Of a DNA stretch of 64,000 nucleotides, positions 5,058 to 25,062 are shown one piece after another. The DNA comes from Lachnospiraceae bacterium. GTDB lineage: Bacteria; Bacillota; Clostridia; Lachnospirales; Lachnospiraceae. The stretch covers positions 48,415 to 112,414 of the forward strand of contig JAFZLD010000014.1 in the NCBI GenBank assembly GCA_017553505.1, written 5' to 3'. The notes beneath the pieces are model-generated. The model had not been told where the DNA came from, made no database searches, and saw only the letters and a program-made list of their open reading frames with translations. Each line of letters begins with the position of its first letter. Position 1 is the first letter of the stretch. Position numbers and translations under genes: made by a program.

Positions 5058-5724
5058 TGAACTTCTTGCTTAACTCCTTAAGTCTCTCTTCCAGATCAAG
5101 CACACGGTTGATAAGCTCGCTGTTGGCCTGCTGAAGGTTCGAAATGTCCTCGCGTACGGGGTCGGGAAGGTCTACCTGATTGAGCTCTTCCTGAGGAAGC
5201 AATGCATCCGCGCGCTTCACCACACGACCGGGAACGCCCACAACAGTAGAGTTCGGAGGCACTTCCTCAAGCACCACGGAACCCGCACCGATTTTGGAAT
5301 TATCCCCAATCTTAAAGGACCCGAGCACCTTCGCGCCGGCGCTTACCATTACGTTATTGCCAAGGGTAGGATGACGCTTGCCCTGCTCCTTACCTGTACC
5401 GCCGAGGGTAACTCCCTGATAAAGCGTACAGTTGTCGCCGATTATGGTAGTCTCACCGATAATAACTCCGTTGCCGTGGTCGATAAAAAGTCCCTTACCG
5501 ATCTCCGCACCGGGGTGAATCTCGATACCCGTCTTGCGCGCAGCCTTCTGGGAAATGTATCTTGCCCAGAAATAATGACCCTTCTTGTAGAGTCTGTGCG
5601 CCCTTCTGTAGCTAAGCATAACCTTGAAACTGGGGTATAAGAATACCTCCCAGTTACAGTGGATAGCCGGGTCACGTTCTTTGATCAATTGTATTTCTTC
5701 TTTAATCTCTTTGATAATACCCAT
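5050..5724 (-). CDS. cysE: Serine O-acetyltransferase
   Basis: A 224-residue enzyme that acetylates serine with acetyl-CoA, the first step of cysteine synthesis. The left-handed beta-helix hexapeptide repeats are clear from about residue 70 to 170 (GAEIGKGLFIDHGNGVIIGE, then DNCTLYQGVTLGGTGKE). The catalytic histidine is in FIDHGNG. The length is that of the short EpsC-type enzyme of Gram-positives. It is the first gene of the cysE-mrnC-rlmB-sigH operon and has a good promoter at 5751-5779. Confidence 0.93.
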   Translation of the reverse strand: MGIIKEIKEEIQLIKERDPAIHCNWEVFLYPSFKVMLSYRRAHRLYKKGHYFWARYISQKAARKTGIEIHPGAEIGKGLFIDHGNGVIIGETTIIGDNCTLYQGVTLGGTGKEQGKRHPTLGNNVMVSAGAKVLGSFKIGDNSKIGAGSVVLEEVPPNSTVVGVPGRVVKRADALLPQEELNQVDLPDPVREDISNLQQANSELINRVLDLEERLKELSKKFNG

Positions 5725-5750
5725 AATCGTACCTTTAAGCGTGATAACTC

Positions 5751-5779
5751 ATTGTAATCCATTTTAAAAAACTTTTCAA
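5751..5779 (-). promoter_or_regulatory. Promoter of the cysE-sigH operon
   Basis: TTGAAA (5779-5774) and TACAAT (5756-5751) on the minus strand with 17 bp spacing, about 27 bp before the cysE start codon. Confidence 0.6.
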
Positions 5780-5811
5780 TGAAGGGAGGGCACATCCCAA
5801 ATATTTTCGCC

Positions 5812-5843
5812 AAAGAAAAGCCACCGGCAGACCCGATGGCTGA
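5812..5843 (-). terminator. Terminator of the lipid kinase gene
   Basis: AGCCATCGG/CCGGTGGCT hairpin followed by UUUUCUUU on the minus strand, directly after the stop codon at 5847. Confidence 0.8.
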
Positions 5844-5846
5844 TTT

Positions 5847-6701
5847 TTATCTGTGTACTTTGTACGATTTAACATCAAGAACTGTCTCGCCGTCAATCTG
5901 AAGCGCGCAGGGGCGGTCGAACTTAACCTCCACCTCGCGGCTCTTAATCTGAATGACTTCCTTGCGATGCTTAATGTGCTCGCCCTTGCCGATACCCGAG
6001 AATATGAGAAGCGTTTTAAGCCTGCTCCTACCTCTGAATATCATGGTAGTAACGGTGTCGTCTTCGTTAAGGCGCTTCTGCCCGGGTGTGGCCTTCATGC
6101 CTCCGCCGTAGTAGCGTCCGTTCATGGTAGGCGCTATCCACACATGGTCGAACACTTTCTTGTGCCCGTCGGAGATGACTGCTGCCGTTACGGGCTTAAA
6201 CTTAAAAAGAAGTCCCTTGATGGCAATAGCCGCATAATTGACGGGCTTATCGCTCTTCTGTCTGAACTTGTCGCCCTCCTCACAGCAGTAGCCGTCGATG
6301 CCGTAACCGATACCGTTTATGAAGCGGTATGTCTCGCCTTTAACCGTAACCTTCGGAAGGTTCTTAATATACGTGTTGAGAAGCACCAGCCCCGGATTGC
6401 CGTCGGGTCTGACATCTCTCATAAAATCGTTACCCGATCCCGAAGGGAAATAATATACCTCTCTCGGAAGCTCTTCATCGCCTATAGTATTTACGAAGCG
6501 ATTAATCGTACCGTCTCCGCCCGAAAGAACAAGCGTCTTGTCCCCGGGAAGCTCTCTCATAAATTTCTTGATATCTTCTATCGAAAGAATGCTCTCGTAC
6601 TCAAACTCGCCGTCCGTGACCGCAGTCTCAATCTCAGTCGCACTCATAAAGCCCCTGCCGCTGTTCGACAGAGGATTAAAAATCACATAATATTTACCCA
6701 T
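5847..6701 (-). CDS. Diacylglycerol/lipid kinase family protein (DAGK catalytic fold)
   Basis: A 284-residue lipid kinase-like protein. It begins GKYYVIFNPLSNSGRG, the usual nucleotide-binding start of the family, and carries the GGDGTINRFVN active-site loop (about residues 59-69) and GSGNDFMRD. Relatives phosphorylate diacylglycerol or related lipids. The ATG at 6701 is chosen over upstream codons because homology begins there and AAAGGAG lies 11 nt ahead. It follows the CE15-like esterase by about 50 nt. A second member of the family is at 44568-45536, so the cell has at least two. Confidence 0.85.
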   Translation of the reverse strand: MGKYYVIFNPLSNSGRGFMSATEIETAVTDGEFEYESILSIEDIKKFMRELPGDKTLVLSGGDGTINRFVNTIGDEELPREVYYFPSGSGNDFMRDVRPDGNPGLVLLNTYIKNLPKVTVKGETYRFINGIGYGIDGYCCEEGDKFRQKSDKPVNYAAIAIKGLLFKFKPVTAAVISDGHKKVFDHVWIAPTMNGRYYGGGMKATPGQKRLNEDDTVTTMIFRGRSRLKTLLIFSGIGKGEHIKHRKEVIQIKSREVEVKFDRPCALQIDGETVLDVKSYKVHR

Positions 6702-6753
6702 TACATCTAACACTCCTTTGTAACCATCCGGAGTATTATAGACCCCCATACCT

Positions 6754-7812
6754 TTATTTTTCCATATACAGATTCTGACTTCTGCACAAAAAATCATGAC
6801 GGCTCGAGAAAATATCGCTGTCAAAGTATTTCACGATTAATTCTGCATCCTCATCCGTCACCGCATGTCCGACCTTGTGCACGTGAATTGCGAAATGCCT
6901 GTTGAGCCCCGCCTCCTCGTAGTAAGGAAGCGCTCTGTTGTAGCACTCCCACATTGCGGGGGCGTTAACCCAGTCCTCGCCTGTAGCTGCGCAGACTATG
7001 AAGTAGTACACTTCAGGGTCCATCGCCAGCGCCGCAAGCATCTCCTGATTGATCGGAATCTCCTCCTCGGTCTTGTACTGCAAGAACTTATCCACGAACC
7101 ATCCGCGCTCCGCATCCGACTGCAGGCACGAAAGTGGCTCGTTCTCGCCGTAAGTGTAGTCTGCCGGCGCATCCACCTCAGTCAAATCATAGGTCTTACC
7201 CTGCGACTTAACTCCGTAAAGCGCCAGTCCGCCCGCTCCCGAGCACGTAGGCACCACCATCTTGAATCTGTGGTCAAAAGCACCGCACACCGCAGTCGCC
7301 TTGCCCCATCTCGAAACGCCCGTCACTACCGCAAGGTTCGGGTCGAATCCAAGCTCGGCTCCCAGACCCGCCTTAACCGCATCCAGCACCTTCGCGGCAC
7401 CCCAGGCCCATGCCATCAGCACACCCGTCTGTTCTTTTTCCTCCCCGTAAGGGTACAATTTGTAAAAGCATCCGTCATGCTTGCAATCGTCCGACGCAAT
7501 CTCCCTAGTATCCATGAATATCAGTCCGAAGCCCGCCTTCGTGAATGTATCCACCGGCTGAATCGGGTGCATGCATATCACAAAAGGATGTGCTCCTTTA
7601 TGCGGCGCGTCTTCCTCCGGCTTAATCACTCTAACGGTAAAAGAAACCCCGTCTACATTTATCTTAACCGGCTCCCCCGGAATCTCCTGTCCGAAGAACG
7701 TCACCGGTTCAGTCTTCGCCGGGTCAAGTATCTCGTAGCTTACACTCTCTCCGCTACGCCACTTACCGTATTCATTCTCTTCAAAAAACTTAATCAGTTT
7801 CTGTCTGTCCAT
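6754..7812 (-). CDS. Glucuronoyl-esterase-like alpha/beta hydrolase (CE15 family)
   Basis: A 352-residue alpha/beta hydrolase. The nucleophile elbow reads VVTGVSRWGKATAV (about residues 163-176), the GxSRxGK form characteristic of CE15 4-O-methyl-glucuronoyl methylesterases. A GHAVTDED near the C-terminus supplies the likely catalytic histidine, and the WFVDKFLQY segment also fits the family. CE15 enzymes cut ester bonds between lignin and glucuronic acid of xylan. There is no signal peptide, so this copy is probably cytoplasmic and may act on imported oligosaccharides or another uronate ester. It has an AGGAGG ribosome site and an extended -10 promoter, and is divergent from a secreted CE1-type esterase. 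Confidence 0.75.
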   Translation of the reverse strand: MDRQKLIKFFEENEYGKWRSGESVSYEILDPAKTEPVTFFGQEIPGEPVKINVDGVSFTVRVIKPEEDAPHKGAHPFVICMHPIQPVDTFTKAGFGLIFMDTREIASDDCKHDGCFYKLYPYGEEKEQTGVLMAWAWGAAKVLDAVKAGLGAELGFDPNLAVVTGVSRWGKATAVCGAFDHRFKMVVPTCSGAGGLALYGVKSQGKTYDLTEVDAPADYTYGENEPLSCLQSDAERGWFVDKFLQYKTEEEIPINQEMLAALAMDPEVYYFIVCAATGEDWVNAPAMWECYNRALPYYEEAGLNRHFAIHVHKVGHAVTDEDAELIVKYFDSDIFSSRHDFLCRSQNLYMEK

Positions 7813-7865
7813 ACCCGTAACCTCCTATGCAGAAACGCCTCTTTGTCGGTTTCCGCAACGACTAT

Positions 7866-7874
7866 ATTATACCA
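7866..7874 (-). promoter_or_regulatory. Extended -10 promoter element of the CE15-like gene
   Basis: TGGTATAAT on the minus strand, that is a TATAAT box with an upstream TG, about 50 bp before the start codon. No good -35 was seen at the usual distance. Confidence 0.4.
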
Positions 7875-7972
7875 AACAGCGCCTTCTTTTTCATTCTTCA
7901 AGTTTTGCCAAAAACTTCTCTGATATTGCCCCGTTTGGTGAAACGTATTGAGGTTTTATTTGTATGTGGTAA

Positions 7973-9088
<1,116 letters not shown>

Positions 9089-9099
9089 ACGCAAAAATA

Positions 9100-9136
9100 C
9101 AGCGATGGGTCTTTTAGCCCATCGCTGCTTTTTTTG
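9100..9136. terminator. Bidirectional terminator
   Basis: AGCGATGGG/CCCATCGCT hairpin with a T-run on the plus side (for the esterase) and a weaker U-rich run on the minus side (for the small membrane protein). Confidence 0.85.
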
Positions 9137-9283
9137 CTAATCTTTTCTTAATGTACCTACTACAGTCATCAGCAAACCCACTGTGCCTAGGACAAGGCAT
9201 CCTATTTCCAAGCCGTTCGAACATAGACTGAGCAAAATAGCAAATAAGATAATAGCTTTTCCGATTTCAGTAAGTCTCTTCAT
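9137..9283 (-). CDS. Small predicted membrane protein, 48 residues
   Basis: Not a recognised family. The frame starts with ATG at 9283 behind a GAGGAGGG ribosome site and ends at 9137 against a terminator. The peptide starts MKRLTEIGKA, has two short hydrophobic runs (about residues 9-20 and 26-44) and ends GTLRKD, so it probably spans the membrane once or twice. An almost consensus promoter (9350-9378) stands upstream. The complete set of promoter, ribosome site, frame and terminator makes it a credible gene despite its size. Confidence 0.65.
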   Translation of the reverse strand: MKRLTEIGKAIILFAILLSLCSNGLEIGCLVLGTVGLLMTVVGTLRKD

Positions 9284-9349
9284 TTCTTAATACCCTCCTC
9301 AATTAATATCACCCAATCGATATTATATCCCATGATATTGCGTGATTAG

Positions 9350-9378
9350 ATTGTATCATTCGCTTATTGTTTAGTCAA
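9350..9378 (-). promoter_or_regulatory. Strong promoter of the small membrane protein gene
   Basis: TTGACT (9378-9373) and TACAAT (9355-9350) on the minus strand with exactly 17 bp between, about 65 bp before the start codon. Confidence 0.65.
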
Positions 9379-9425
9379 TGTATCACATCAGTATAATTAG
9401 TTGCGCTTTATTATATTTCTTATGT

Positions 9426-9464
9426 TAAAAAGGCCTCTTATCATATAAATGAAGAGACCTTTTA
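9426..9464 (-). terminator. Terminator of the malic enzyme gene
   Basis: AAAGGTCTCTT pairs with AAGAGGCCTTT on the minus strand and is followed by U's, 40 nt past the stop codon. Confidence 0.75.
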
Positions 9465-9505
9465 ATTACATCCATATTCAGTTAAGCATCGAAGATGCGT
9501 ATATC

Positions 9506-10678
9506 TTAGATTCTGTTCACACCAGTCTTAACAGCTGCTGCCTTAACAGCCTCTGCTACGGTCTTGCCGACTCTCTCATCGAAAGCGTTGGGAATGATGT
9601 ACTCGGGGTTGAGTTCAGCATCGGATACGAGGCTTGCGATAGCGTAAGCGGCTGCGACTTTCATTTCATCGTTGATGTCGCGGGCACGTACGTCGAGAGC
9701 GCCGCGGAAGATACCGGGGAAGGCAAGTACGTTGTTAATCTGGTTGGGGAAGTCGGAGCGTCCGGTTCCTACAACGGCTGCGCCTGCGGCCTTGGCTTCG
9801 TCGGGGTTGATTTCGGGAACAGGGTTAGCCATCGGGAAAAGAATGGGATTGGGAGCCATTGTCTTAACCATCTCTGCGGTAACGGTACCGGGAGCGGATA
9901 CACCGATGAATACGTCGGCACCCTTGATTACATCAGCGAGAGAACCTTTCTCGTGGTTCTTGTTGGTAATCTTGGCCATTTCAACCTTCTCGGAGTTAAG
10001 GCCTTCTCGTCCTTCGTAGATGGCGCCGGTTCTGTCGCACATGATAACATTTTTAAGTCCCATGCTGACAAGAAGCTTGATGATAGCGATACCTGCGGCA
10101 CCTGCGCCGGAGGTAACTACCTTAATGTCTTTAATGTCTTTCTTAACAATCTTAAGGGCGTTAATCATAGCGGCAAGCACTACAACTGCGGTGCCGTGCT
10201 GATCGTCGTGGAAAATCGGGATGTCGCAGACTTCCTTAAGTCTTCTTTCTATTTCAAAACATCTGGGAGCGGAAATATCTTCAAGGTTAACTCCGCCGAA
10301 AGAACCAGCAAGAAGCTTAACGGTATTTACGATTTCATCAACGTCCTTGGAACGGATGCAAAGAGGGAAAGCATCTACGCCGCCGAAAGCCTTGAACAAT
10401 GCGCATTTACCTTCCATAACTGGCATGCCGGCTTCGGGTCCGATATCACCAAGGCCGAGTACTGCGGTACCGTCGGTGATAACCGCTACGAGGTTGTGAC
10501 GTCTGGTGTACTTGTAAGATAAGTCCACATCCTTCTGAATCTCGAGGCAGGGTTCCGCAACACCGGGAGTGTAAGCTACCGAGAGCTCTTCTTTATTGGA
10601 AACGGAGGCGCGGCTGATTACTTCAATCTTGCCGGCCCATTCTTCGTGCTGCTTAAGTGCGAATTCTTTTTTGTCCAT
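9506..10678 (-). CDS. NAD(P)-dependent malic enzyme
   Basis: A 390-residue malic enzyme of the short bacterial type, which oxidatively decarboxylates malate to pyruvate and CO2. The malic N-terminal domain is seen as ELSVAYTPGVAEPCLEI (about residues 31-47, with the catalytic tyrosine) and DGTAVLGLGDIGPEAGMPVM. The catalytic aspartates are in FHDDQHGTAVV, and the dinucleotide-binding turn GAGAAGIA is at about residue 191. The protein ends without the phosphotransacetylase-like domain of larger enzymes. It stands alone with its own promoter and terminator. Confidence 0.93.
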   Translation of the reverse strand: MDKKEFALKQHEEWAGKIEVISRASVSNKEELSVAYTPGVAEPCLEIQKDVDLSYKYTRRHNLVAVITDGTAVLGLGDIGPEAGMPVMEGKCALFKAFGGVDAFPLCIRSKDVDEIVNTVKLLAGSFGGVNLEDISAPRCFEIERRLKEVCDIPIFHDDQHGTAVVVLAAMINALKIVKKDIKDIKVVTSGAGAAGIAIIKLLVSMGLKNVIMCDRTGAIYEGREGLNSEKVEMAKITNKNHEKGSLADVIKGADVFIGVSAPGTVTAEMVKTMAPNPILFPMANPVPEINPDEAKAAGAAVVGTGRSDFPNQINNVLAFPGIFRGALDVRARDINDEMKVAAAYAIASLVSDAELNPEYIIPNAFDERVGKTVAEAVKAAAVKTGVNRI

Positions 10679-10711
10679 GATAATAGTCTCCTATGAAAGT
10701 TTATCGTTGAT

Positions 10712-10739
10712 AGTATATCACTTTAGTCAAATAAAGCAA
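10712..10739 (-). promoter_or_regulatory. Promoter of the malic enzyme gene
   Basis: TTGCTT (10739-10734) and TATACT (10717-10712), 16 bp apart on the minus strand, about 34 bp before the start codon. Confidence 0.45.
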
Positions 10740-10761
10740 ATACAATTTAATCAAACTTTTA

Positions 10762-10790
10762 TTGTTACTAGGGGAAGTTTTTTGTATAAT
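10762..10790 (+). promoter_or_regulatory. Promoter of the membrane-anchored protein gene
   Basis: TTGTTA (10762-10767) and TATAAT (10785-10790) with 17 bp spacing. Transcription from here would begin at about 10797, so the tandem repeats that follow would be a leader RNA of about 195 nt. Confidence 0.6.
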
Positions 10791-10791
10791 T

Positions 10792-10980
10792 GAGCCGGAA
10801 TAAGTCCGAAGGACTTATTCGAAGGCGACCGATAATAAAGCGCTTTAGCGGTTTATTATAGAGCCGGACCAAACCCAAAGGGTCTATTCGAAGGCGACCG
10901 ATAATAAATCGCTTTAGCGGTTTATTATATGGCTGGGCCAAGTCTGAAGGACTCATTCCGAAAGCGATCGATAATAAAGA
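10792..10980 (+). repeat. Three tandem 69-bp structured repeats in a 5' leader
   Basis: Units begin at 10792, 10861 and 10930, a period of exactly 69 bp. Each opens GAGCCGG or a variant, then has hairpin A (AATAAGTCC gaa GGACTTATT in unit 1), a conserved CGAAGGCGACCGATAATAAA core, and hairpin B (ATAATAAA-CGCT/AGCG-TTTATTAT). The third unit stops after the core and runs into the AGAGAGGAT ribosome site of the next gene, so it could control access to that site. A diverged copy is at 33356-33423. The function is unknown. Confidence 0.85.
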
Positions 10981-10992
10981 GAGGATATCAGC

Positions 10993-11649
10993 ATGAAGAA
11001 TATAAAGCGTTTTGCGGCAGCGTTCATTATTGCCGCCATAGCATTCCTGTCAGCAGGTTCAAGCGCCCGCGCGGAAGGCGAGCTCAACACCTATGAAAAG
11101 ACCTTTACCTATACCAGGGGCGACGGCAAGACCTTCGGCGCCACCGTAACCATCAAGAGTTCCGCCGAGACCGACTGGAACCTTAGATTTGAAAAAGAAA
11201 ACGACGAGACTACCGATAACTACGTCTACTACCGCATAATCGCGGACGGCAACCCCGGTGACGTTATCGATGTAAGTCTCACCACCGAATACCCCGACAC
11301 TTTGCTCGGCGTTACCATGATGCCCAGGATTAACGGCAGCTGGAAGAGCGGCACCCAGAAGACCCTCTTTGCTACCGCCGAGGACAATTCCATCAATTTA
11401 AGCTATACCATCGATCAGAACGCTTCAGACCTTCAGGTAGCCGCAAGTGCTTACTCTAAGTCTTTCAGTTCCAAGAAGCCCGGCAGCATGGATGTTATCC
11501 TTACCATTGAGACCCCGCTTCACACCGATACCGTCAAGAGCGAAGGCGGCGGCAGGTTCTTTATAACTGTTGTAATATCCGTTCTTTTTCTGGTAGCGCT
11601 TTCAATGTTTATGGGCAAAAGAAGCGCCATGAAGAATAAAAAGAAATAA
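10993..11649 (+). CDS. Secreted, membrane-anchored protein of unknown function
   Basis: A 218-residue protein with an N-terminal signal peptide (hydrophobic stretch about residues 8-22, cleavage after SSARA) and a C-terminal membrane segment (about residues 187-207, FFITVVISVLFLVALSMF) followed by a lysine-rich tail. This layout gives an outside domain of about 160 residues with the C-terminus in the cytoplasm. The outside part is beta-rich with repeated Thr and Asp/Asn; no family was recognised. It is preceded by a promoter and three tandem structured repeats and ends 7 nt before the convergent regulator gene. Confidence 0.75.
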   Translation: MKNIKRFAAAFIIAAIAFLSAGSSARAEGELNTYEKTFTYTRGDGKTFGATVTIKSSAETDWNLRFEKENDETTDNYVYYRIIADGNPGDVIDVSLTTEYPDTLLGVTMMPRINGSWKSGTQKTLFATAEDNSINLSYTIDQNASDLQVAASAYSKSFSSKKPGSMDVILTIETPLHTDTVKSEGGGRFFITVVISVLFLVALSMFMGKRSAMKNKKK

Positions 11650-11655
11650 CGCAGG

Positions 11656-12732
11656 TCACTTGCGTTCTTCACGCCTCTTACGCCTTACGCGGTTGATGTG
11701 GCGTACGAAGTCACCGTTTTCGATTAATTCCGCGAGCACGTACTGCTCCATCACCGGAACGGTGCATGAATAGAAACCGATTTTATCACTAAACACCTTT
11801 TCAAGAGTTTTCGGTATTACCATGTAGGCAGCCCTGACGTAGGGGCCTACGGTTCTTGTGAAGGTGTTTACGTATATTACGCGGTCGTTTTTATCAAGAG
11901 AATAAAGCGTCTCCTCCGCCTTTCGGCTGGGGGTAAACTCCGACTCGAAGTCATCTTCTATGATTATTCCGTCTTTCTCAACGCTCCACTTTAAGTACTC
12001 CGCTTTCTTGGCGGCAGATGCAGTAACGCCGGTCGGGAAGCTTCGATATGGCGTAATGTGCAATACCTTCGCCTCTGTCTGCCATAAGAATTCGCTCTCG
12101 ATACCGTCGTCGCCGAGGTGTAATAGTTCAGGCTTCACGCCTTCGGTCTTGTATATCTTGTATATCTTAGGATATGACGGGTACTCGCCCGCGAACTTCG
12201 TATCACGCCCCAGCGCATTGATGATAAGTCCATAGAGATATTCCGCTCCGGCGCCGATTATTATCCTGTCGCTCTCCGCCTTGATGCCTCTGTAGCGGTA
12301 CAGATAATCGCTAATGGCACTTCTTAAGCACTCACATCCGTACCCCGGTGAGCGCTCGGTTAGTTCCTCACCGTATTCACTCAGAACTCGCCTTACTGTC
12401 CTTGCATATATGTTAAAAGAAATCTCTTCGTCGTGCGTTACACCTGTATTAGTTTTCGCATGTCTGTATACACTTCTGTCTGTCACGCCATCTATTTTCT
12501 CAGATACGGCAAAAGAATCGCTTTCTCTGTAGGTCACAAAATATCCGCTTTTTTCGACCGTGGAAATGTATCCTTCTTCCTGCAAAAGTTCAAAAGCATG
12601 CTCCACCGTGATGACGCTTACACCGTTATCCTGAGCCGTAACTCTCTTCGAGGGAAGCTTGTCGCCGTAATGGTAAATTCCGTCGATAATTTTTCTTTTG
12701 ACGTCTTCGTAGAGGCTTAAATATCTGGTCAT
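11656..12732 (-). CDS. MocR/GntR-type regulator with degenerate, shortened aminotransferase domain
   Basis: A 358-residue protein. Residues 1-70 are a GntR winged helix (KIIDGIYHYGDKLPSKR, then the VSVITVEHAFELLQEEGYI recognition helix). From about residue 105 it follows class-I aminotransferases: GAGAEYLYGLI, FPTGVTAS and IIIEDDFESEF. The position of the PLP-binding lysine (usually TFSKT) reads TFTRT, so that lysine appears replaced by arginine. The protein ends about 90 residues earlier than typical MocR proteins, right after the INRVRRKRR segment. It faces an ECF S-component gene, a likely target. It could sense PLP non-covalently or respond to another ligand. Confidence 0.8.
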   Translation of the reverse strand: MTRYLSLYEDVKRKIIDGIYHYGDKLPSKRVTAQDNGVSVITVEHAFELLQEEGYISTVEKSGYFVTYRESDSFAVSEKIDGVTDRSVYRHAKTNTGVTHDEEISFNIYARTVRRVLSEYGEELTERSPGYGCECLRSAISDYLYRYRGIKAESDRIIIGAGAEYLYGLIINALGRDTKFAGEYPSYPKIYKIYKTEGVKPELLHLGDDGIESEFLWQTEAKVLHITPYRSFPTGVTASAAKKAEYLKWSVEKDGIIIEDDFESEFTPSRKAEETLYSLDKNDRVIYVNTFTRTVGPYVRAAYMVIPKTLEKVFSDKIGFYSCTVPVMEQYVLAELIENGDFVRHINRVRRKRREERK

Positions 12733-17637: not shown

Positions 17638-17640
17638 ATG

Positions 17641-17671
17641 TAAAAAGCGCCGTTTATACGACGCTTTTTCT
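17641..17671. terminator. Bidirectional terminator
   Basis: AAAAAGCGxCGT/ACGxCGCTTTTT hairpin with A- and T-rich flanks between the convergent CYTH and ABC exporter genes. Confidence 0.8.
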
Positions 17672-17680
17672 TATGTTTCA

Positions 17681-19858
17681 TTAGTTTAAGTATTGTATCC
17701 GTGCAAGTTCTGCATACTTGCCTTCCGCGGCGCACAGTTCGTCATGCGTTCCCGCTTCCGTAATCTTTCCGTTTTCAAATACATAAATTCTGTCGCAGTT
17801 TCTGATAAGGCTGAGCCTGTGAGCGATGATTATCACTGTAATGTCCCGGGCAAAAGAATCGAGCGACTCGGTAAGGGTCTTCTCCGTCAAAGCATCCAGG
17901 TTGCTGGTGGCTTCGTCAAGTATCAGTATGCGAGGCTTCTTAACAATTGCTCTTGCTATGGCGAGCCTCTGCTTTTGCCCGCCCGAGAGGTTGGAACCGT
18001 TTTCTTCAATCAGCGTATCGTAACCAAGTGGCATCTCTTCTATGAAATCATGAGCCATCGCAATCTTCGCAGCCGCTACCACATCTTCCTGCGTAGCGTG
18101 CTCGCAACCGATAGCTATATTCTCGGTCACCGTGCCTCGGAACAAGAAAGTATCCTGAGGAATATAGACCACATTTTCTCGCAAGGCACTCTTGGAAATA
18201 TCCGAAATGTTTACTCCGCCTATCTCGATTGTTCCGCCCTTTGCCTCGTAAAAACCGAGAAGGAGCTTGGCTATTGTAGTCTTGCCTGAACCGCTGTCAC
18301 CCACAAAGGCAACATGCTCTCCGGGCGCTATATTTGCGCTTATGCCGCTTATTACTTCTTTTCTGAAGCCGTACGAGAAGTGAATATCCTTAACAGAAAT
18401 GCTGTTGTCCGCCGGAAAAGCTTTATCGGCATCCTTCTTTCCTTCCTCATCAAGCTCCATAACTTCGTTAAGTCTGTCTGCCGCAACCATGGCGGTCTGC
18501 ACCTGCGGCTGAAGGTTAATAATGCTTTTCAACGGTTCCATAAAGAATGACATGAGTGAGCTGAATGCAAGCACCGTACCAATGCTTATCTCGCCCCTTA
18601 TTACGCTCATGGCGCCGACCCAGATTATCACGCTTGTTCCCACAAGCTCGGTGGCACTCTTCAGAGCATCCTGGGCATTTATGGAATAGTACATCTTTGA
18701 AACGCTGCTCATGTATGCATCAAATCGCGAATCGCCCTTGTCGATAACGTTCGCCTCAGTCCGATATGCTTTGACTGTCATGATGCCGTTTAGAGACTCC
18801 ACCAAATGTGAGGTGAGTTTCGCGCCATTCTCCATCACTTCTTCGTTAAGTCTTCTGAAAAGTCCGTTGTAAGCAAGCGCAATCACCGCATATACCAGCA
18901 CTACCGCAAGAGTAATAAAGAACATCTTTGCATTCTGCAAGTACAGAACTATCGCCCCGGCAATTGCCATCAGCGTATCTACCATTATAGTGACCGTCGC
19001 CCCGATAACAGCCTCCCTGACCTTACCGGCGTCAGTGAACCTCGAAACCACCTCACCGATTCTTCTGCTGTCAAAGAAAGTCATCGGCAGTTTCATGACA
19101 TGCTTAAAATATCCAAACACCAGCGATGTATCCACTTTTCTTCCAAGCGATATCAAAAGGTGCCTTCTGAAGGCGTTTAACAATACCCTGAAAACATTTA
19201 ACAGAATAACGCCGATTGAAACCGCCGCAAGCGTCTTTTCAAGGGCATTCGGAAGAATGTTATCAAGGATTTCTTTTAAAAAGAAAGAGCTGAGAATTCC
19301 TGCGGCCGAAAAAAGAACGGATGCGACAAAAACCGCCGCAAGTATTCCTTTGTGAGCAAGCAGCACCTCAAGTGCCTTTCTTATACCGCCCTTTGACCGA
19401 GCCATGGTCGGCATCTCGTCGGTTTTCTCAAGAACAACAATTACTCCCGACCACTTATATGTGTGGCGGCCTTTGGCCGGTTTTTTCTTTCCCGTAAATT
19501 CATCTATGGTTAAATGCACCAATCCCGCTGCAGGATCGGCGATTGTCAGTTTTCCGTCTTTAATCTTATGTATTACCACAAAGTGAAGTAAGCCATCGTC
19601 TACCACCACATGGGCAATGCACGGCGTATCAAGGTCACTTGTAAGTGCCTCTTCGGTGCCCTTGTAGCCTTTGGCGTTATATCCGAGTCTTGATGCGGCA
19701 TAAATCAACCCCTTAACATTCGTGCCCATCTTGTCGGTTCCCGCAGCCTCGCGAATCTTGGCGATGCTGACGCTTCTGTTATCCTGTTTGCATATCGTGG
19801 CAAGGCATGCTGCCGCACAATCCGTCACATCGTGCTGTCTGACACAAGCATACTTCAT
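17681..19858 (-). CDS. Peptidase-containing ABC exporter for double-glycine peptides (C39, LanT/PCAT type)
   Basis: A 725-residue exporter that cleaves leaders and exports the product in one chain. Residues 1-125 are a C39 cysteine peptidase: Gln8, Cys14 in VTDCAAACL, His92 in LLHFVVIHKI and Asp108 in IADPA. Residues about 150-450 carry six membrane helices. The ATPase domain has GDSGSGKTT, NLSGGQKQRLAIARA and ILILDEATSN. The frame extends to 19906; the ATG at 19858 is chosen because the peptidase fold starts there. It lies behind two tiny genes for double-glycine peptides (20122-20253 and 19968-20084), separated by a leaky terminator. No accessory membrane-fusion protein, modification enzyme or immunity gene is adjacent. 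Confidence 0.92.
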   Translation of the reverse strand: MKYACVRQHDVTDCAAACLATICKQDNRSVSIAKIREAAGTDKMGTNVKGLIYAASRLGYNAKGYKGTEEALTSDLDTPCIAHVVVDDGLLHFVVIHKIKDGKLTIADPAAGLVHLTIDEFTGKKKPAKGRHTYKWSGVIVVLEKTDEMPTMARSKGGIRKALEVLLAHKGILAAVFVASVLFSAAGILSSFFLKEILDNILPNALEKTLAAVSIGVILLNVFRVLLNAFRRHLLISLGRKVDTSLVFGYFKHVMKLPMTFFDSRRIGEVVSRFTDAGKVREAVIGATVTIMVDTLMAIAGAIVLYLQNAKMFFITLAVVLVYAVIALAYNGLFRRLNEEVMENGAKLTSHLVESLNGIMTVKAYRTEANVIDKGDSRFDAYMSSVSKMYYSINAQDALKSATELVGTSVIIWVGAMSVIRGEISIGTVLAFSSLMSFFMEPLKSIINLQPQVQTAMVAADRLNEVMELDEEGKKDADKAFPADNSISVKDIHFSYGFRKEVISGISANIAPGEHVAFVGDSGSGKTTIAKLLLGFYEAKGGTIEIGGVNISDISKSALRENVVYIPQDTFLFRGTVTENIAIGCEHATQEDVVAAAKIAMAHDFIEEMPLGYDTLIEENGSNLSGGQKQRLAIARAIVKKPRILILDEATSNLDALTEKTLTESLDSFARDITVIIIAHRLSLIRNCDRIYVFENGKITEAGTHDELCAAEGKYAELARIQYLN

Positions 19859-19880
19859 CTGACCCATACTCCATTCCCGA

Positions 19881-19920
19881 ACAAAAATAAGCATCCACCC
19901 GCCCAAGGGATGGATGCTTA
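19881..19920 (-). terminator. Partial terminator between peptide genes and exporter
   Basis: AAGCATCCA/TGGATGCTT hairpin followed by AUUUUUGUU on the minus strand, 48 nt after peptide 1 and before the exporter. It would make peptide transcripts more abundant than exporter transcripts, with read-through for the exporter. Confidence 0.7.
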
Positions 19921-19967
19921 CATATAAATTACCAAATAATACTCACTAACTCAATAGATGAAATCAA

Positions 19968-20084
19968 TCACGGTAAATCAGCGTTCCTATGAACAAACCA
20001 ATCGGGAGGGAGCACTTCATACTCTCCACCGGTAATAGCCTCGAGTTCCTGATCGTTGAGTTCAACCAAAATTTCTTTCTTCAT
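19968..20084 (-). CDS. Double-glycine leader peptide 1 (38 residues)
   Basis: Recognised on the minus strand from ATG 20084 behind an AAAGGGG ribosome site. The leader MKKEILVELNDQELEAITGG (residues 1-20) has the form cut by C39 peptidase exporters: helical, acidic, hydrophobic at the usual spacing, ending in GG. The predicted 18-residue product is EYEVLPPDWFVHRNADLP. It is acidic, Pro- and aromatic-rich, has no cysteine and does not look like a membrane-active bacteriocin. It is 37 nt after peptide 2 and upstream of the exporter, hence probably one operon. Confidence 0.82.
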   Translation of the reverse strand: MKKEILVELNDQELEAITGGEYEVLPPDWFVHRNADLP

Positions 20085-20121
20085 ATATTAACCCCTTTCT
20101 AATCTCTTAAGTACTTTTTAC

Positions 20122-20253
20122 TTAATGGCCGCCACCCAAGCTGCCGACCTTGCCATCCCATACAGGAATGTCAATCGGAATATACTCATAGCGTCCGCCT
20201 TCGGTATTTTCAAGTTCCTGTTCATTAAGTTCAACTAATAGTTCTTTCTTCAT
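20122..20253 (-). CDS. Double-glycine leader peptide 2 (43 residues)
   Basis: Recognised on the minus strand from ATG 20253 behind AAAGGAAG. The leader MKKELLVELNEQELENTEGG matches that of peptide 1 at 14 of 20 positions. The predicted 23-residue product starts RYEYIPIDIP and ends KVGSLGGGH. Like the other two it begins x-Y-x-x-[LI]-P. It is the first gene after the promoter at 20329-20356. Function unknown; candidate secreted signal or small antimicrobial peptide. Confidence 0.82.
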   Translation of the reverse strand: MKKELLVELNEQELENTEGGRYEYIPIDIPVWDGKVGSLGGGH

Positions 20254-20328
20254 GCCATAACTTCCTTTCTGTTTTGTACTGATTTTCAATAACATCCCAA
20301 TATTTCTTGCAAGAATTGGTATGTGCTA

Positions 20329-20356
20329 ATTATAATCCTTCAGTCTTCTTTTGAAA
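20329..20356 (-). promoter_or_regulatory. Promoter of the peptide-exporter operon
   Basis: TTTCAA (20356-20351) and TATAAT (20334-20329) with 16 bp spacing on the minus strand, about 75 bp upstream of peptide 2. Confidence 0.5.
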
Positions 20357-20465
20357 AGAGATTCTTTTATTAAAATATTATTACATTATCATCGATATGG
20401 CAGACAATACTTCCCATACGCTCTAATTATTTAATAATTTATTTACAAACAGCGCAAAGGGCACA

Positions 20466-20527: not shown

Positions 20528-21262
20528 TCATTCGTCGGCTTCGCCGTCTTCTAACTTAAGGCCTTCAGCTTCGATGTTGTCGCGCTTTGCACAGGTCTTG
20601 CAAAGACGGGTCTTGTTGTCTGCGATTGCCTGATCGACAGAGCCCTCGTACAATGTATCGCTGTTGTTTAAGTGTGAGCAATCTGCGCTGGTGTGATATA
20701 CCTTACCGAACTGTGTCCAGTATACTTCGCCGGTAATGGCTGCTTCTGCTGCTGCCTTTTCTTCGGAAGAAATAGGGTTCCAGTCGTAGCTGCATAATCC
20801 GCCGATTAAGAGTGCGATGATACCTACAACTACTGCGATAGCCTTGGTCTTCTTGTCAAGCTTGTTCTGCTTGTCGGTGAAGATCAAGATGATGTAAGGA
20901 AGGAAAGCAATGATACATACGATAACGCCCATGTTGTTCCAAAGGAAGAACTTAACGGGGTTCTTCTTGGATGCGGGATCGATGCGGTTAGCTTTCTTCC
21001 AAAGCTGAGAACCGATGATTACAAAGATTAAATCAAGTACCAGAACACCGATAATACCTGCAAGTGTAGGTAAAGGTAATCTGATCTTGTCAAAATATAA
21101 TAAAAATCCTAATACTTCAAAACAAATTGCGACAAGCCAGCAAATAATGGCGCCGCATCTTAAGCCACCTGCGTTGCCTACAGGCTTAGCTTCTTTAATG
21201 GTCTTACCGTCTTCGGTCTTCTCAACCTTGACGATTTTGCGTTCCTTTTTCTCTTCTGCCAT
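20528..21262 (-). CDS. Membrane protein with C-terminal Cys/His motif, unknown
   Basis: A 244-residue protein. Residues 1-35 are charged and cytoplasmic. Four hydrophobic segments follow at about 37-57, 66-88, 108-128 and 139-160. The C-terminal part contains VYHTSADCSHLNNSD and then RLCKTCAK, a pattern like the small Ada-type Cys4/Cys3His metal-binding modules seen at the ends of many Gram-positive membrane or secreted proteins. It lies between the peptide operon and the third peptide, but its own terminator and ribosome site suggest independent expression. A link with the peptides is possible but unproven. Confidence 0.65.
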   Translation of the reverse strand: MAEEKKERKIVKVEKTEDGKTIKEAKPVGNAGGLRCGAIICWLVAICFEVLGFLLYFDKIRLPLPTLAGIIGVLVLDLIFVIIGSQLWKKANRIDPASKKNPVKFFLWNNMGVIVCIIAFLPYIILIFTDKQNKLDKKTKAIAVVVGIIALLIGGLCSYDWNPISSEEKAAAEAAITGEVYWTQFGKVYHTSADCSHLNNSDTLYEGSVDQAIADNKTRLCKTCAKRDNIEAEGLKLEDGEADE

Positions 21263-22022: not shown

Positions 22023-22042
22023 AAAGATTCTTATAAACAAGC

Positions 22043-22076
22043 AAAGGGACCTGCCCATCAAGGCAAGTCCCTTTTT
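22043..22076. terminator. Terminator between DUF937 gene and peptide 3
   Basis: AAGGGAC/GTCCCTT hairpin with a T-run for the plus strand. The minus side has a weaker U-run and lies 44 nt past peptide 3. Confidence 0.8.
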
Positions 22077-22119
22077 AGTTTCGAATTGTTCGTTGTTAGG
22101 CCAATCGGTCTATCCTATA

Positions 22120-22245
22120 TCACGGATTTCCGGGATAAGGCTTACCATTTCCATACATCTCATAGAGAGGAAGGCATACATATTTACCGCCATCAACCTT
22201 CTCAAGTTCTTCTTCTTCCAACTCGATTAAAAGATTCTTCTCCAT
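22120..22245 (-). CDS. Double-glycine leader peptide 3 (41 residues)
   Basis: Recognised on the minus strand from ATG 22245 behind AAAGGAGAG. The leader MEKNLLIELEEEELEKVDGG is similar in length, charge and spacing to those of peptides 1 and 2. The predicted 21-residue product starts KYVCLPLYEM and ends PYPGNP, again beginning x-Y-x-x-[LI]-P; it has the only cysteine in the set. It stands about 1.9 kb from the other two, with two unrelated genes between, and must use the same or another C39 exporter in trans. Confidence 0.78.
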   Translation of the reverse strand: MEKNLLIELEEEELEKVDGGKYVCLPLYEMYGNGKPYPGNP

Positions 22246-22424
22246 ATTGAACTCTCCTTTCCTAATGTACCATAATACCTATCGGTGAACTTATTGTACA
22301 CCATCAATCCGAGTGTTTATATGCATATAATTGACGAATAGCGCAACTACTTTTTGTACAAAACATCCTATTGGACATATAACATCTGCAATTTTTACGA
22401 ATTGTGTCTCTTTATGAGTAATCA

Positions 22425-22465
22425 GTCAAAAAAGCAGACCGACCACGTCACGCGATCGGCCTGTG
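22425..22465 (-). terminator. Terminator of the ArsA-type operon
   Basis: AGGCCGA/TCGGTCT hairpin followed by CUUUUUU on the minus strand, just after the second ArsA-type gene. Confidence 0.8.
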
Positions 22466-22468
22466 TAT

Positions 22469-23623
22469 TTATTCAAAACTTATAATCAGATATCCCTCCT
22501 CAAATTTTGCTCCCGCCACATTCAGCTCCTTGAACTCTGCCGGCACGGGGAATCTGCGGCGCTCGTTCTTGACGCCTACGGTTATTTCGGAGCCGTCCTG
22601 GTTAAGTTCGAGTTCTTCTTTGGTCGCGAAAGGAAGGTAGATGGTGAGAGTTCGTGCGGCGCTGTCTACACGGTACATTTCTTTCTTGAAGAGGACCGCG
22701 TCGGGCTGCATGTCTTTAAACATGAGGTCGCCGATTCTGCCTAGGCCATCGACGGTACGAAGCTCGCTGTCCTGAAGCTCCACATAAATCTTGGGCACTT
22801 CGCCGAAGCATTCTTTAATCTCTGTCAGGCCTTCCTCCTGGCGCTTGATCCACTTGTTGAAGTAGCCTTCCATGGCCTTCGCGGGGTAAATGTGGTTCAC
22901 GATTACCGCGTCTACGTTGTAATGGTAAAGGTAAAGGCAGGTGAAGTTACGCTTCGCCTCGCTGATTACGATTTTCTCGGGCGTTGTCACCACTCTGAGG
23001 CTGACGGTGTCCGTATTGAGCATCAGCTTCTGAAGGCGCTGCATCTTGTCCATAAGATACTCAACGTCGTCGAATACGCTCTCACCGGGCATGGGAATCT
23101 TCATGAGCCCTTCAACCACGGGTCCCGCCACTTTCACGCCCACTTTCTTCATGGGAAGCACCTTGTCGATGAGCGTCGAGAAACGCTCGGGATACTTAAG
23201 AAGCGACAACGTCTCGCCTGTGGGGGCGCAGTCTACGATGATTACGTCGTATCTGCCACTTTCGTACATCTCCAGAATTTTAAACATCGAAAACAGTTCT
23301 TCAAGTCCCGGAAAAACAAGGAGTTCCTCCGCCTCGATTCCGCCCTCACCCCTGCTGGTTATGAGACGCTTCATGTAATCCTTGAGGTTGCCCCAGCTCT
23401 TCTCGCCCTCGTAAACCGTATCGATTTCCATGGCATCGAGATTGTTGGTGACGGGTGTCGCCTCGCGCCCTACCTTGCAGTCAAAAGAATCTCCCAGGCT
23501 GTGGGCCTGGTCGGTACTCATGATGAGTACCTTTTTGCCGGCGCGTGCCAGTTTCACGGCGGTTGCGGCAGCCATGCTGGTCTTGCCGACGCCGCCCTTG
23601 CCGGTATATATAATCACTCTCAT
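22469..23623 (-). CDS. ArsA/Get3-family ATPase (second of a pair)
   Basis: A 384-residue ATPase of the ArsA/Get3 group. The deviant Walker A is YTGKGGVGKTSMAAA (residues 6-20); switch I reads STDQAHSLGD and switch II VDCAPTGETLSLL. A C-terminal beta domain of the ArsA-HSP20 type runs from about residue 320 (LTIYLPFATKEELELNQDG). Relatives either power arsenite export or carry tail-anchored membrane proteins. No arsenite pump, ArsR or ArsD is nearby, so arsenic resistance is unlikely. It is about 40% identical by eye to its upstream twin and probably pairs with it. Last gene of a MarR-linked operon. Confidence 0.85.
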   Translation of the reverse strand: MRVIIYTGKGGVGKTSMAAATAVKLARAGKKVLIMSTDQAHSLGDSFDCKVGREATPVTNNLDAMEIDTVYEGEKSWGNLKDYMKRLITSRGEGGIEAEELLVFPGLEELFSMFKILEMYESGRYDVIIVDCAPTGETLSLLKYPERFSTLIDKVLPMKKVGVKVAGPVVEGLMKIPMPGESVFDDVEYLMDKMQRLQKLMLNTDTVSLRVVTTPEKIVISEAKRNFTCLYLYHYNVDAVIVNHIYPAKAMEGYFNKWIKRQEEGLTEIKECFGEVPKIYVELQDSELRTVDGLGRIGDLMFKDMQPDAVLFKKEMYRVDSAARTLTIYLPFATKEELELNQDGSEITVGVKNERRRFPVPAEFKELNVAGAKFEEGYLIISFE

Positions 23624-23636
23624 GTGTGTGTTCTCC

Positions 23637-23885
23637 TTACTGAATGTCTACTTTCTTGACGCGCTCTTCGGTCTCTGCGCCGCTGTCGGTGCAGGCGTCC
23701 GCGCCCGTTCCTGTTCCGAAGGCGCACTCTCGTCCGAATCTTATGACGCTTTCTTTTACCAGCGCCTTCAGTTCCTTGGCTATCACTTCTATATGTCCTG
23801 CCGACTCCTTGGGAAGGAGTTCCATTATTGCTTTCTTTTGATATTCGCTCGCGCGTTTGATTCTTTGTCTCAATTCTCTATTCAT
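23637..23885 (-). CDS. Small protein between the two ArsA-type genes, unknown
   Basis: An 82-residue protein whose start overlaps the end of the upstream ArsA-type gene by 8 nt and which ends 13 nt before the next. The first 48 residues are helical and charged (ELRQRIKRASEYQKKAIMEL). The tail is Gly/Thr/Ala-rich with two cysteines (ECAFGTGTGADACTDSG). There is no signal or membrane segment. The tight packing suggests a partner or cargo adaptor of the two ATPases, but no family is recognised. Confidence 0.7.
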   Translation of the reverse strand: MNRELRQRIKRASEYQKKAIMELLPKESAGHIEVIAKELKALVKESVIRFGRECAFGTGTGADACTDSGAETEERVKKVDIQ

Positions 23886-25062
23886 TCTCGTCTCCTTTCT
23901 CCTCTTTGGTGAAAAGAATGTTTAACTTGCCGTCCTCGTATCCTGCTTTGGCCACGCTTAAGTTCATGAGCATGTTGGGAAGAGGAATGTTTCTTTTGAA
24001 GTTACCTATCTTGATTACTATGTCCGCGCCTGCCTGGAAGAGGTCGATGTCGCCCTTGTCGGCGCAGGGAATGTTGACCTTGAGCACGTAGCCGTCGTCG
24101 GTCTTTTCGAAGCTTTCGCGCTCGGTAGTTGCGTGGCTTGCGAATACGTCCTTGTCTGCGAGCGCGTCATTTACAAGTCTTTCTACGTTCTTAATGCCCT
24201 TGAGTTCCTCGTCGTACCAGGGAATCTCGCAGATGGGGAGTCCCGCGAAAGTGCTCTTAAGCACATCGATGTAATCCTTCTGAAGCTTAATCCACTTGTC
24301 AAAGAAATCGTTGCCGATGTCCTCGGGCAGGATTCTGTTGATGTATAGACCGTCTACGTTGAAATTGTAGAGGTTCATGTACATGTAGTTACGCTTGGTC
24401 TCCTCAACCACCATTTTCTCGGGAACGCTTACGATGCGCACGCTTGTGACGTCGCGGTTTTTAAGCAGTTCCTGAAGTTCTGCAAGCTTCATGTAAATCT
24501 TCTCGATGTCGTTCATGGCCTGCTTGTTAGGCATCTCAATCTTGAAAAGCGACTTCGATACCGGCGCAAGTACCCGGACACCTACCTTACCTATCGGGAA
24601 AAGCTTCTCCATGTACCAGGAGAGCATTTCGGGGAACTTAAGAAGCGATAACGTCTCACCTGTCGGCGCGCAGTCTACGATGATGCGCTCATATGCACCG
24701 CTCTTATGAAGCTCTGCGATTTTTAACAGCGAAAAAAGTTCTTCCGTTCCCGGTATAATTCCTATGTCCGCCGGTGCCAGCTCATCTGCGCCCGCAAGCA
24801 GGTTCTTGGCATATCTGATTATGTCCGCGAAGTCAGTCTCGCACACATACGCGGGGTCTATCTCGTAAATATCAAGGTTCGGCATTACATTCTCGATATC
24901 TCTTGATAACTTGCGCTCGAAGATGTCCCCGAGATTATGCGCCATGTCGGTACTGACAAGAAGCGTTTTCTTGCCTTCTTTGGCGCTTTTATAAGCGTGG
25001 GCCGCCGCGATACTGCTTTTGCCGACTCCGCCTTTACCTGTGAAAATGTATATTCTGCTCAT
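23878..25062 (-). CDS. ArsA/Get3-family ATPase (first of a pair)
   Basis: A 394-residue twin of the ATPase at 22469. It has FTGKGGVGKSSIAAAHAYKS, switch I STDMAHNLGD, switch II VDCAPTGETLSLL and a C-terminal ArsA-HSP20-type beta domain (DDGYVLKVNIPCADKGDIDL). Classical ArsA fuses two such halves in one chain; here they are two genes, so a heterodimer is likely. It is the first gene after the MarR-type regulator, with a palindromic operator-like site at 25098-25110 just before it. Confidence 0.85.
   Translation of the reverse strand: MSRIYIFTGKGGVGKSSIAAAHAYKSAKEGKKTLLVSTDMAHNLGDIFERKLSRDIENVMPNLDIYEIDPAYVCETDFADIIRYAKNLLAGADELAPADIGIIPGTEELFSLLKIAELHKSGAYERIIVDCAPTGETLSLLKFPEMLSWYMEKLFPIGKVGVRVLAPVSKSLFKIEMPNKQAMNDIEKIYMKLAELQELLKNRDVTSVRIVSVPEKMVVEETKRNYMYMNLYNFNVDGLYINRILPEDIGNDFFDKWIKLQKDYIDVLKSTFAGLPICEIPWYDEELKGIKNVERLVNDALADKDVFASHATTERESFEKTDDGYVLKVNIPCADKGDIDLFQAGADIVIKIGNFKRNIPLPNMLMNLSVAKAGYEDGKLNILFTKEEKGDENE

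What the first reader, a model, noticed from the sequence alone, without database searches (positions are those of the whole stretch)
17681..20356. Unmodified double-glycine peptide pair with a C39 exporter: candidate new secreted peptide system
Two tiny genes encode 38- and 43-residue peptides with near-identical leaders ending in GG. They are followed by a complete C39-peptidase ABC exporter. The products (18 and 23 residues) start EYEVLPP and RYEYIPI, are acidic to neutral and rich in Pro and aromatics. No modification enzyme, immunity gene, accessory export protein, kinase or response regulator is adjacent, unlike typical class II bacteriocin or lanthipeptide loci. Secreted signalling is a plausible function.
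Basis: partly seen in the sequence, partly recalled or inferred. Interest (0 to 1): 0.85.

Follow-up and report, generated by a model that had tools for sequence, protein, structure and literature searches.

The report
Three variable exported peptides with exporter
A gut-type bacterium carries a dedicated pump that would cut and release three very short, unmodified and fast-changing peptides, probably messages or weapons aimed at its relatives, although what receives them is not known.

Summary
In detail: p1 (20122-20253), p2 (19968-20084) and a PCAT1-like C39 exporter (17681-19858), all on the minus strand, are genes.
A sister species (G013, Lachnospiraceae YSD2013) keeps the exporter (98% aa) and p3 but has one divergent peptide at the p1/p2 place; exporter dN is 0.011, core dN 0.11 (p3) and 0.44 (p1).
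A third species (G002) is collinear and lacks both pieces, 2.8 kb (exporter+p1+p2) and 0.47 kb (p3), which sit between different convergent gene pairs.
Only 2 of 18 genus genomes hold the peptides; searches of 397 family and 392 order genomes gave no clear relative outside the own genome. Of 20 near family loci, 16 have an HlyD adaptor; this one does not.
Most likely these are secreted, unmodified, specificity-determining peptides; I favour signalling (0.5) over narrow antimicrobials (0.25). No receptor, activity or expression is shown. Known kind (GG peptides plus PCAT), unusual variant.

The parts
20122..20253 (-). p1: 43-residue precursor, leader MKKELLVELNEQELENTEGG, core RYEYIPIDIPVWDGKVGSLGGGH
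   Evidence: frame at the same place in sister L064:7787-7918
19968..20084 (-). p2: 38-residue precursor, leader MKKEILVELNDQELEAITGG, core EYEVLPPDWFVHRNADLP
   Evidence: no second peptide at this place in the sister
17681..19858 (-). C39-peptidase ABC exporter, 725 aa, PCAT1-like
   Evidence: PF03412, PF00664, PF00005; TIGR01193 647.5 bits, cut-off 523.85; PCAT1 4ry2 657 bits
   Evidence: conserved in L064:5834-5959
20329..20357 (-). promoter-like site of p1 (TTTTCA, 17, TATAAT)
   Evidence: TATAAT kept in the sister
20296..20319 (-). 24-base imperfect palindrome just downstream of the p1 -10 site, kept in the sister; operator candidate
   Evidence: one copy in each of the two genomes at up to 3 mismatches
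22284..22305 (-). p3 upstream element GATGGTGTACAATAAGTTCACC; the 100 bases upstream of p3 are 95% identical in the sister
   Evidence: one copy in each of the two genomes at up to 3 mismatches
19887..19921 (-). 14-pair terminator-like hairpin between p2 and exporter; candidate partial terminator
   Evidence: hairpin also in the sister, 13 of 13 counted pairs kept, one compensatory (two sequences, shuffle control not passed)
22043..22074 (-). terminator-like hairpin after p3
17638..20463 (.). segment absent from the collinear genome G002 (exporter, p2, p1, promoter); limits approximate
22023..22490 (.). segment absent from G002 (p3 unit); limits approximate

Best explanation
A small two-site secretion system. 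The exporter binds the leaders of p1, p2 and p3 through leucines at -7 and -12, cuts after GG in its C39 domain and exports linear, unmodified peptides of 23, 18 and 21 residues. Their fast-changing cores act outside the cell as lineage-specific signals sensed by a receptor encoded elsewhere. Shown by sequence: genes, exporter identity, leader features, conservation, core divergence, shared presence and absence in three genomes. Inferred: cleavage and export by this exporter, joint use by p3, the signalling role and an unlinked receptor.
For: Exporter closest to PCAT1 among solved chains, with the catalytic Cys and the His of its HF motif aligned. L-7 and L-12 are present in all five leaders, three of the window and two of the sister; PMC6959990, passages seen, reports that these leucines matter for binding PCAT1. 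Between G000 and G013: exporter dN 0.011, dS 0.22; p3 leader dN 0.02, core dN 0.11; p1 core dN 0.44. p1 core DNA identity is 38 of 72 against 2063 of 2178 for the exporter. The window cores are short and polar (charge -3.1 to +0.7, GRAVY -0.26 to -0.71), unlike the hydrophobic products beside many related exporters. No evident further gene enters with the peptides; the neighbouring 244-aa membrane protein is also in G002, which lacks them. p3 and the exporter unit are both present in G000 and G013 and both absent from G002. Signals of this export class with undiscovered receptors are on record: VP1 and BriC (PMC7595303, passages).
Against: No kinase, regulator or receptor in either insert. The complete peptide/kinase locus on C5 has no counterpart in G013 by exporter, regulator or kinase, so it cannot be the receptor shared by both species. 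Three different cores in one cell is more than a classic pheromone locus has. Bacteriocins diversify as quickly (recalled), and the exporter sits in a clade whose neighbours are mostly bacteriocin-like. dN/dS of the cores stays below 1 (0.40 for p3, 0.47 for p1), so positive selection is not shown. No expression data.
Confidence: 0.5

Rival explanations
1. The peptides are narrow-spectrum, unmodified antimicrobials (class II bacteriocin-like, possibly multi-peptide) that hit close relatives; immunity lies elsewhere or is intrinsic.
For: Exporter clade and NCBIfam subfamily (TIGR01193) are bacteriocin-associated; p2 just passes the leader model TIGR01847 (16.0 bits, cut-off 15.7); the sister's p1 comes near two bacteriocin models (NF038167 25.6 of 32, TIGR03949 20.4 of 21.5 bits); tandem peptides; rapid core change and patchy presence.
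Against: Window cores are not cationic-amphiphilic by charge and hydropathy; no core-spanning bacteriocin model reaches its cut-off; no evident immunity gene inside either insert.
Confidence: 0.25
2. Secreted structural or public-good peptides (biofilm matrix, surface or metal binding), neither signal nor toxin.
For: Precedent: GG peptides in Synechococcus affect biofilm (PMC4997328, start of abstract in the listings only); p1 and its sister both end in GGGH.
Against: Rapid core change with a near-frozen exporter fits partner-specific recognition better.
Confidence: 0.12
3. Precursors of a modified peptide whose enzymes are unlinked.
For: Weak hits to lantibiotic leader models below cut-off; Tyr-, Pro- and Trp-rich cores.
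Against: No modification family among the 17 window proteins scanned (exporter, three peptides and 13 neighbours from 11.7 to 27.8 kb); one Cys and one Ser in the three window cores. The rest of the genome was not searched for such enzymes.
Confidence: 0.06
4. A decaying remnant of a bacteriocin locus that lost kinase, regulator and adaptor.
For: Lacks HlyD although 16 of 20 near family loci have it; long stem of the exporter in the tree (1.03 changes per column).
Against: Exporter under strong purifying selection (dN/dS 0.05), intact catalytic residues, and 95 of 100 bases identical upstream of p3.
Confidence: 0.07

Closest known systems
PCAT1 and its substrate CtA (Clostridium thermocellum; organism recalled)
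   Same: Closest solved exporter (657 bits); C39, membrane and ATPase domains in one chain; leucine -7/-12 leader recognition
   Different: CtA is about 10.2 kDa, the window precursors are 38-43 residues; CtA's sequence was not compared
Pneumococcal rtg locus (PMC7018657: abstract and two sections read)
   Same: A PCAT exporting several co-regulated GG peptides that share an N-terminal leader motif
   Different: rtg has a linked Rgg regulator, pheromone RtgS and adaptor RtgB; none here
ComC/BlpC-type GG pheromones (recalled; VP1 and BriC seen)
   Same: Short linear core behind a GG leader, allelic cores
   Different: No linked kinase and regulator; PF03047 12.9-14.3 bits against 20.4 for p3 and p2, VP1 model 14.3-18.9 bits against 85 for p3 and the sister peptides
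Class IIb/IIc bacteriocin loci of Lachnospiraceae, such as C5 of the same genome (L119)
   Same: Exporter 52% identical; GG leaders
   Different: C5 has kinase, LytTR regulator, HlyD and hydrophobic peptides

Membership tests
GG peptides with a C39 exporter (PCAT system) | C39, ABC membrane and ATPase domains in one chain, catalytic residues kept | tested here: met
GG peptides with a C39 exporter (PCAT system) | Leader with hydrophobic -7, -12 and GG at -2/-1 | tested here: met
   five of five leaders; rule from PMC6959990 (passages)
GG peptides with a C39 exporter (PCAT system) | Cleavage after GG and export | not testable with these tools
   needs protein and mass spectrometry
Class II bacteriocin | Core-spanning family model over cut-off | tested here: not met
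   PF10439 12.6-15.9 bits against 27.1, TIGR03949 15.1-20.4 against 21.5, NF038167 up to 25.6 against 32; only the 15-residue leader model TIGR01847 passes, for p2 alone
Class II bacteriocin | Cationic or amphiphilic, hydrophobic core | tested here: not met
   charge -3.1 to +0.7, GRAVY below -0.25 for the three window cores; amphipathicity itself not computed
Class II bacteriocin | Linked immunity gene | tested here: not met
   no further evident gene in either insert; unlinked immunity not excluded
Class II bacteriocin | Kills or inhibits relatives | not testable with these tools
   bench assay needed
ComC/BlpC-type quorum-sensing pheromone | Linked GHKL kinase and LytTR regulator | tested here: not met
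   none among window proteins scanned from 11.7 to 27.8 kb, none in 18 kb of the sister locus L064
ComC/BlpC-type quorum-sensing pheromone | Conserved leader, allelic core | tested here: inconclusive
   p3 fits (leader dN 0.02, core 0.11); for p1 the leader has diverged too (dN 0.19, synonymous sites saturated); two genomes only
ComC/BlpC-type quorum-sensing pheromone | Peptide activates a receptor | not testable with these tools
   bench assay needed
Lanthipeptide or other modified peptide | Linked modification enzyme | tested here: not met
   17 window proteins between 11.7 and 27.8 kb scanned; rest of genome not searched

The most novel reading that the evidence does not exclude
p1-p3 are the first members of a class of linear Tyr/Pro-rich GG pheromones, exported by an adaptor-free PCAT lineage and encoded at two separate sites gained or lost together, in which the peptide cassette is replaced between sister species while promoter palindrome, hairpin and exporter stay. 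The receptor is an orphan GHKL/LytTR pair, such as C9:74-76 kb or C19:13-16 kb, both with counterparts in G013 and none found in G002.
Probability: 0.15. Interest if true: 0.65.

Novelty: new variant of a known kind. Interest (0 to 1): 0.42.

Why it matters
If the peptides are signals, they would open peptide communication in a rumen- and gut-associated Lachnospiraceae lineage where the listings of my open-access text searches showed no description of this locus. The sister pair with different peptides and the natural empty-site species make specificity and function directly testable. If they are antimicrobials, they are an unusual, polar, very short type.

Tried and rejected
Cross-talk with the C5 peptide QYPIIYILPVEPTPYGKPVTI: looks alike, but local alignment to p1 and p3 is no better than shuffles (534 and 663 of 2000 reach it), and G013 lacks C5. 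Pediocin (YGNG in p3): no class IIa hit at E <= 1. Shared promoter elements between p1, p3 and C5: best 20-base matches 13-16 of 20; 10-base direct repeats 18-24 bases apart with 8 or more matches upstream of p3 (1), the sister's p1 (1) and C5 genes (7 lines, partly overlapping), the p3 one not seen in the sister's p3; no shuffle control was run, so LytTR sites are neither shown nor excluded. RNA structure at the p1 palindrome: not supported (z about +0.4 for 106 nt, two genomes), so a DNA operator is more likely. Covariation of the intergenic hairpin: 257 of 500 shuffles reach it with two sequences, so no evidence by itself. Rfam: one hit below its gathering score (23.4 of 40 bits, E 0.0042) over the p3 terminator, dismissed. 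Weak hits of the peptide profile elsewhere: unrelated where inspected. Viral contigs (all five peptides as alignment), phages (p3 only), plasmids (p1 and p3 only): no relative. PADLOC: ATPase-type hits only, judged from position; PHROGs: none for the peptides. Structure prediction was not run; isolated 18-23-residue peptides would give little.
Full report
WHAT IS THERE. Along the minus strand: p3 (22120-22245), then past a DUF937 gene on the other strand a 244-aa membrane protein, then p1 (20122-20253), p2 (19968-20084) and the exporter. The window is G000:C18:48415-112414 of a 3.13-Mb genome.

EXPORTER. PF03412, PF00664 and PF00005 all match; TIGR01193 scores 647.5 bits (cut-off 523.85). The closest solved chain is PCAT1 (4ry2, 657 bits), then ComA (507 bits). 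In the C39 alignment the TDC motif with the catalytic Cys and the HF motif line up; PMC6959990 (passages) names C21 and H99 as catalytic and shows that L-7 and L-12 of the substrate matter for binding. All five leaders (three of the window, two of the sister) have L at -7 and -12.

SISTER SPECIES. G013 contig C17 has the same length, 80,206 bases, as FMTX01000018 of Lachnospiraceae bacterium YSD2013 (L064), so I take them as the same contig. It is collinear with the window. The exporter is 97.8% identical in amino acids, dN 0.011, dS 0.22. p3 is conserved: leader dN 0.02, core dN 0.11, 95 of 100 upstream bases identical. At the p1/p2 place there is one peptide with core QLEYLPVDWEKVWGGLAGSGGGH; against p1 its leader has saturated synonymous differences and dN 0.19, and its core dN is 0.44. 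Since the exporter beside it has dS 0.22, the peptide cassette looks replaced or exceptionally diverged rather than simply inherited. dN/dS stays below 1, so positive selection is not shown. Which species changed is unknown.

EMPTY SITE. Of 18 genus genomes, several incomplete, 3 hold the neighbouring ArsA-like gene at E <= 1e-60. In one of these, G002, the region is collinear at 85-89% DNA identity in the long blocks but lacks about window 17638-20463 and 22023-22490. Both missing pieces lie between convergent genes and are separated by about 1.56 kb of shared DNA. So in the three comparable genomes the two pieces are both present twice and both absent once. This is why I count p3 as part of the system; with three genomes it is suggestive, not proof. 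Gain in the G000/G013 ancestor and loss in G002 are both possible. Because the 244-aa membrane protein is in G002 as well, it is unlikely to be an immunity protein for these peptides.

DISTRIBUTION. Peptide profile searches: genus, strong hits in 2 of 18 genomes, 5 others with weak hits at E <= 1; family, strong hits only in the own genome of 397, a draw that did not bring up G013; order, only in the own genome of 392, a draw that overlaps the family draw. Weaker hits occur in 26 other family genomes (E <= 0.1) and 5 other order genomes (E <= 0.01). Of the 32 weak places, 21 match the leader part only. The 11 that reach into the core part were read: none is a short frame with a GG leader (stops inside, long frames or no leader). 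The leader-only places were scanned by pattern and five loci by eye; where a peptide was seen its core is unrelated, but not each place was read. No relative in viral contigs or, for p1 and p3, in plasmids, or, for p3, in phages; p2 was not searched alone there. The exporter's next full-length relatives are at most 53% identical in the family loci fetched, and 45% in plasmids. A scan of 84,980 genomes gave only L064 as a close relative, but that method finds close relatives only.

HOW IT DIFFERS FROM ITS CLADE. One search lists 75 places besides the window's own. I fetched 60 loci: a first set of 20, all from the top 22 of that list (ranks 20 and 21 went into the second set), and 40 more. In the first set an HlyD relative is found in 16, a regulator in 9 and a kinase in 7; in the second set of 40, in 9, 6 and 6. 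The queries come from the C5 locus, which is itself one of the first 20, and sensitivity falls with distance. Of the four first-set loci without HlyD, L111 has a broken exporter frame, L114 and L130 are short contigs, and L126 (41% identical) is a real exception as far as seen. The G013 locus has none and none was seen in the window. In a 53-row tree the window pair sits on a long stem (1.03) inside the bacteriocin-exporter clade, without a resolved nearest neighbour. GG-leader frames were listed by a script that demands a ribosome site, so misses and false frames are likely: at 14 of the first 20 loci, mostly hydrophobic. Over the 60 loci eight have cores of 26 residues or fewer, and two of these eight have two or more prolines: L119, in the same genome, and L124, whose leader is doubtful.

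CORE MOTIF. Y2, [LI]5 and P6 occur in p1, p2 and p3. The product of shuffle chances for p2 and p3 given p1 is 4.6e-6, but the motif was chosen after seeing the data; a less tailored count (two columns identical in all three within the first twelve) is reached by 203 of 200,000 shuffles. Free local alignment supports p1-p2 (40 of 2000 shuffles), p2 with the sister's p1 (23 of 2000) and p1 with the sister's p1 (0 of 2000), but not p1-p3 (1308 of 2000) or p2-p3 (797 of 2000). The sister's p1 has L at position 2. So p1, p2 and the sister's p1 are one family; p3 is tied to them by its leader and by shared presence.

EXPRESSION LAYOUT. p1 has TTTTCA-17-TATAAT (14 such sites in 2.8 kb against 5.4 in shuffles) followed by a palindromic 24-mer found once in each of the two genomes at up to three mismatches. 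It is kept while nearby DNA diverged, and the stretch around it does not fold as RNA better than shuffles, so I read it as an operator for an unknown factor. p3 has its own conserved upstream region and terminator-like hairpin. A strong hairpin before the exporter may give more peptide than exporter transcript; that is inference.

RECEPTOR. The C5 locus (L119) is a complete peptide/kinase/regulator/adaptor locus, but G013 shows no such exporter. Of the 11 LytTR loci of G000, 8 have a DNA match among the 10 of G013; C5:61954, C26:49021 and C9:241697 have none. Of the 9 GHKL kinase loci of G000, 6 match G013; of these six, C9:74 kb and C19:16 kb have no match among the 4 loci found in G002. These two pairs are the candidates I would test first. 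One has a chemoreceptor and a sugar-binding-type protein beside it and the other a 7TM kinase domain, so their ligands may be something else. Many genes will share this pattern by descent, and receptors of other kinds were not searched.

JUDGEMENT. Real precursor genes: high confidence. PCAT-type export: high by sequence, untested. Function: signalling 0.5, antimicrobial 0.25, structural or other 0.12, degenerate 0.07, modified peptide 0.06. Literature: PMC13289728 (Hungate1000 bacteriocins; passages) does not name YSD2013 in its main text. Of the 14 papers holding that string, seen only in the search listing, one is about rumen lasso peptides and one about the sheep rumen; the other titles look like other uses of the string. 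Supplements were not searched, so earlier automatic listing of this locus is possible.

Noticed in passing
L119:4326-5123 and 5367-11796 (G000 contig C5): Complete class II bacteriocin-type locus: peptide 4503 passes TIGR03949 (28.8 bits, cut-off 21.5), with kinase, C39 exporter, HlyD adaptor and LytTR regulator.
   Followed up: partly
L119:4724-4873: A 49-aa membrane-type frame near peptide 4326 copies its C-terminal part (16 of 25 residues identical): possibly an immunity protein that mimics its bacteriocin, or a leaderless partner.
   Followed up: partly
window 22469-25062: Two tandem ArsA-type ATPases, each with an HSP20-like tail, beside a MarR regulator; found in 3 of 18 genus genomes.
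   Followed up: no
window 20528-21262: 244-aa membrane protein with a C-terminal Cys-containing stretch; no Pfam or NCBIfam family over cut-off; kept in the genome without the peptides.
   Followed up: no
L206:3818-5784 (G000 C9) and L212: GHKL kinase and LytTR regulator pair next to a chemoreceptor and a periplasmic binding protein; counterpart in G013, none among the GHKL loci of G002.
   Followed up: partly
L213:1608 and L214:1447: GG-leader frames with core KYEVLDSNGTLIGYADTLEEAMASG..., identical in two species of one other genus; a different peptide kind.
   Followed up: no
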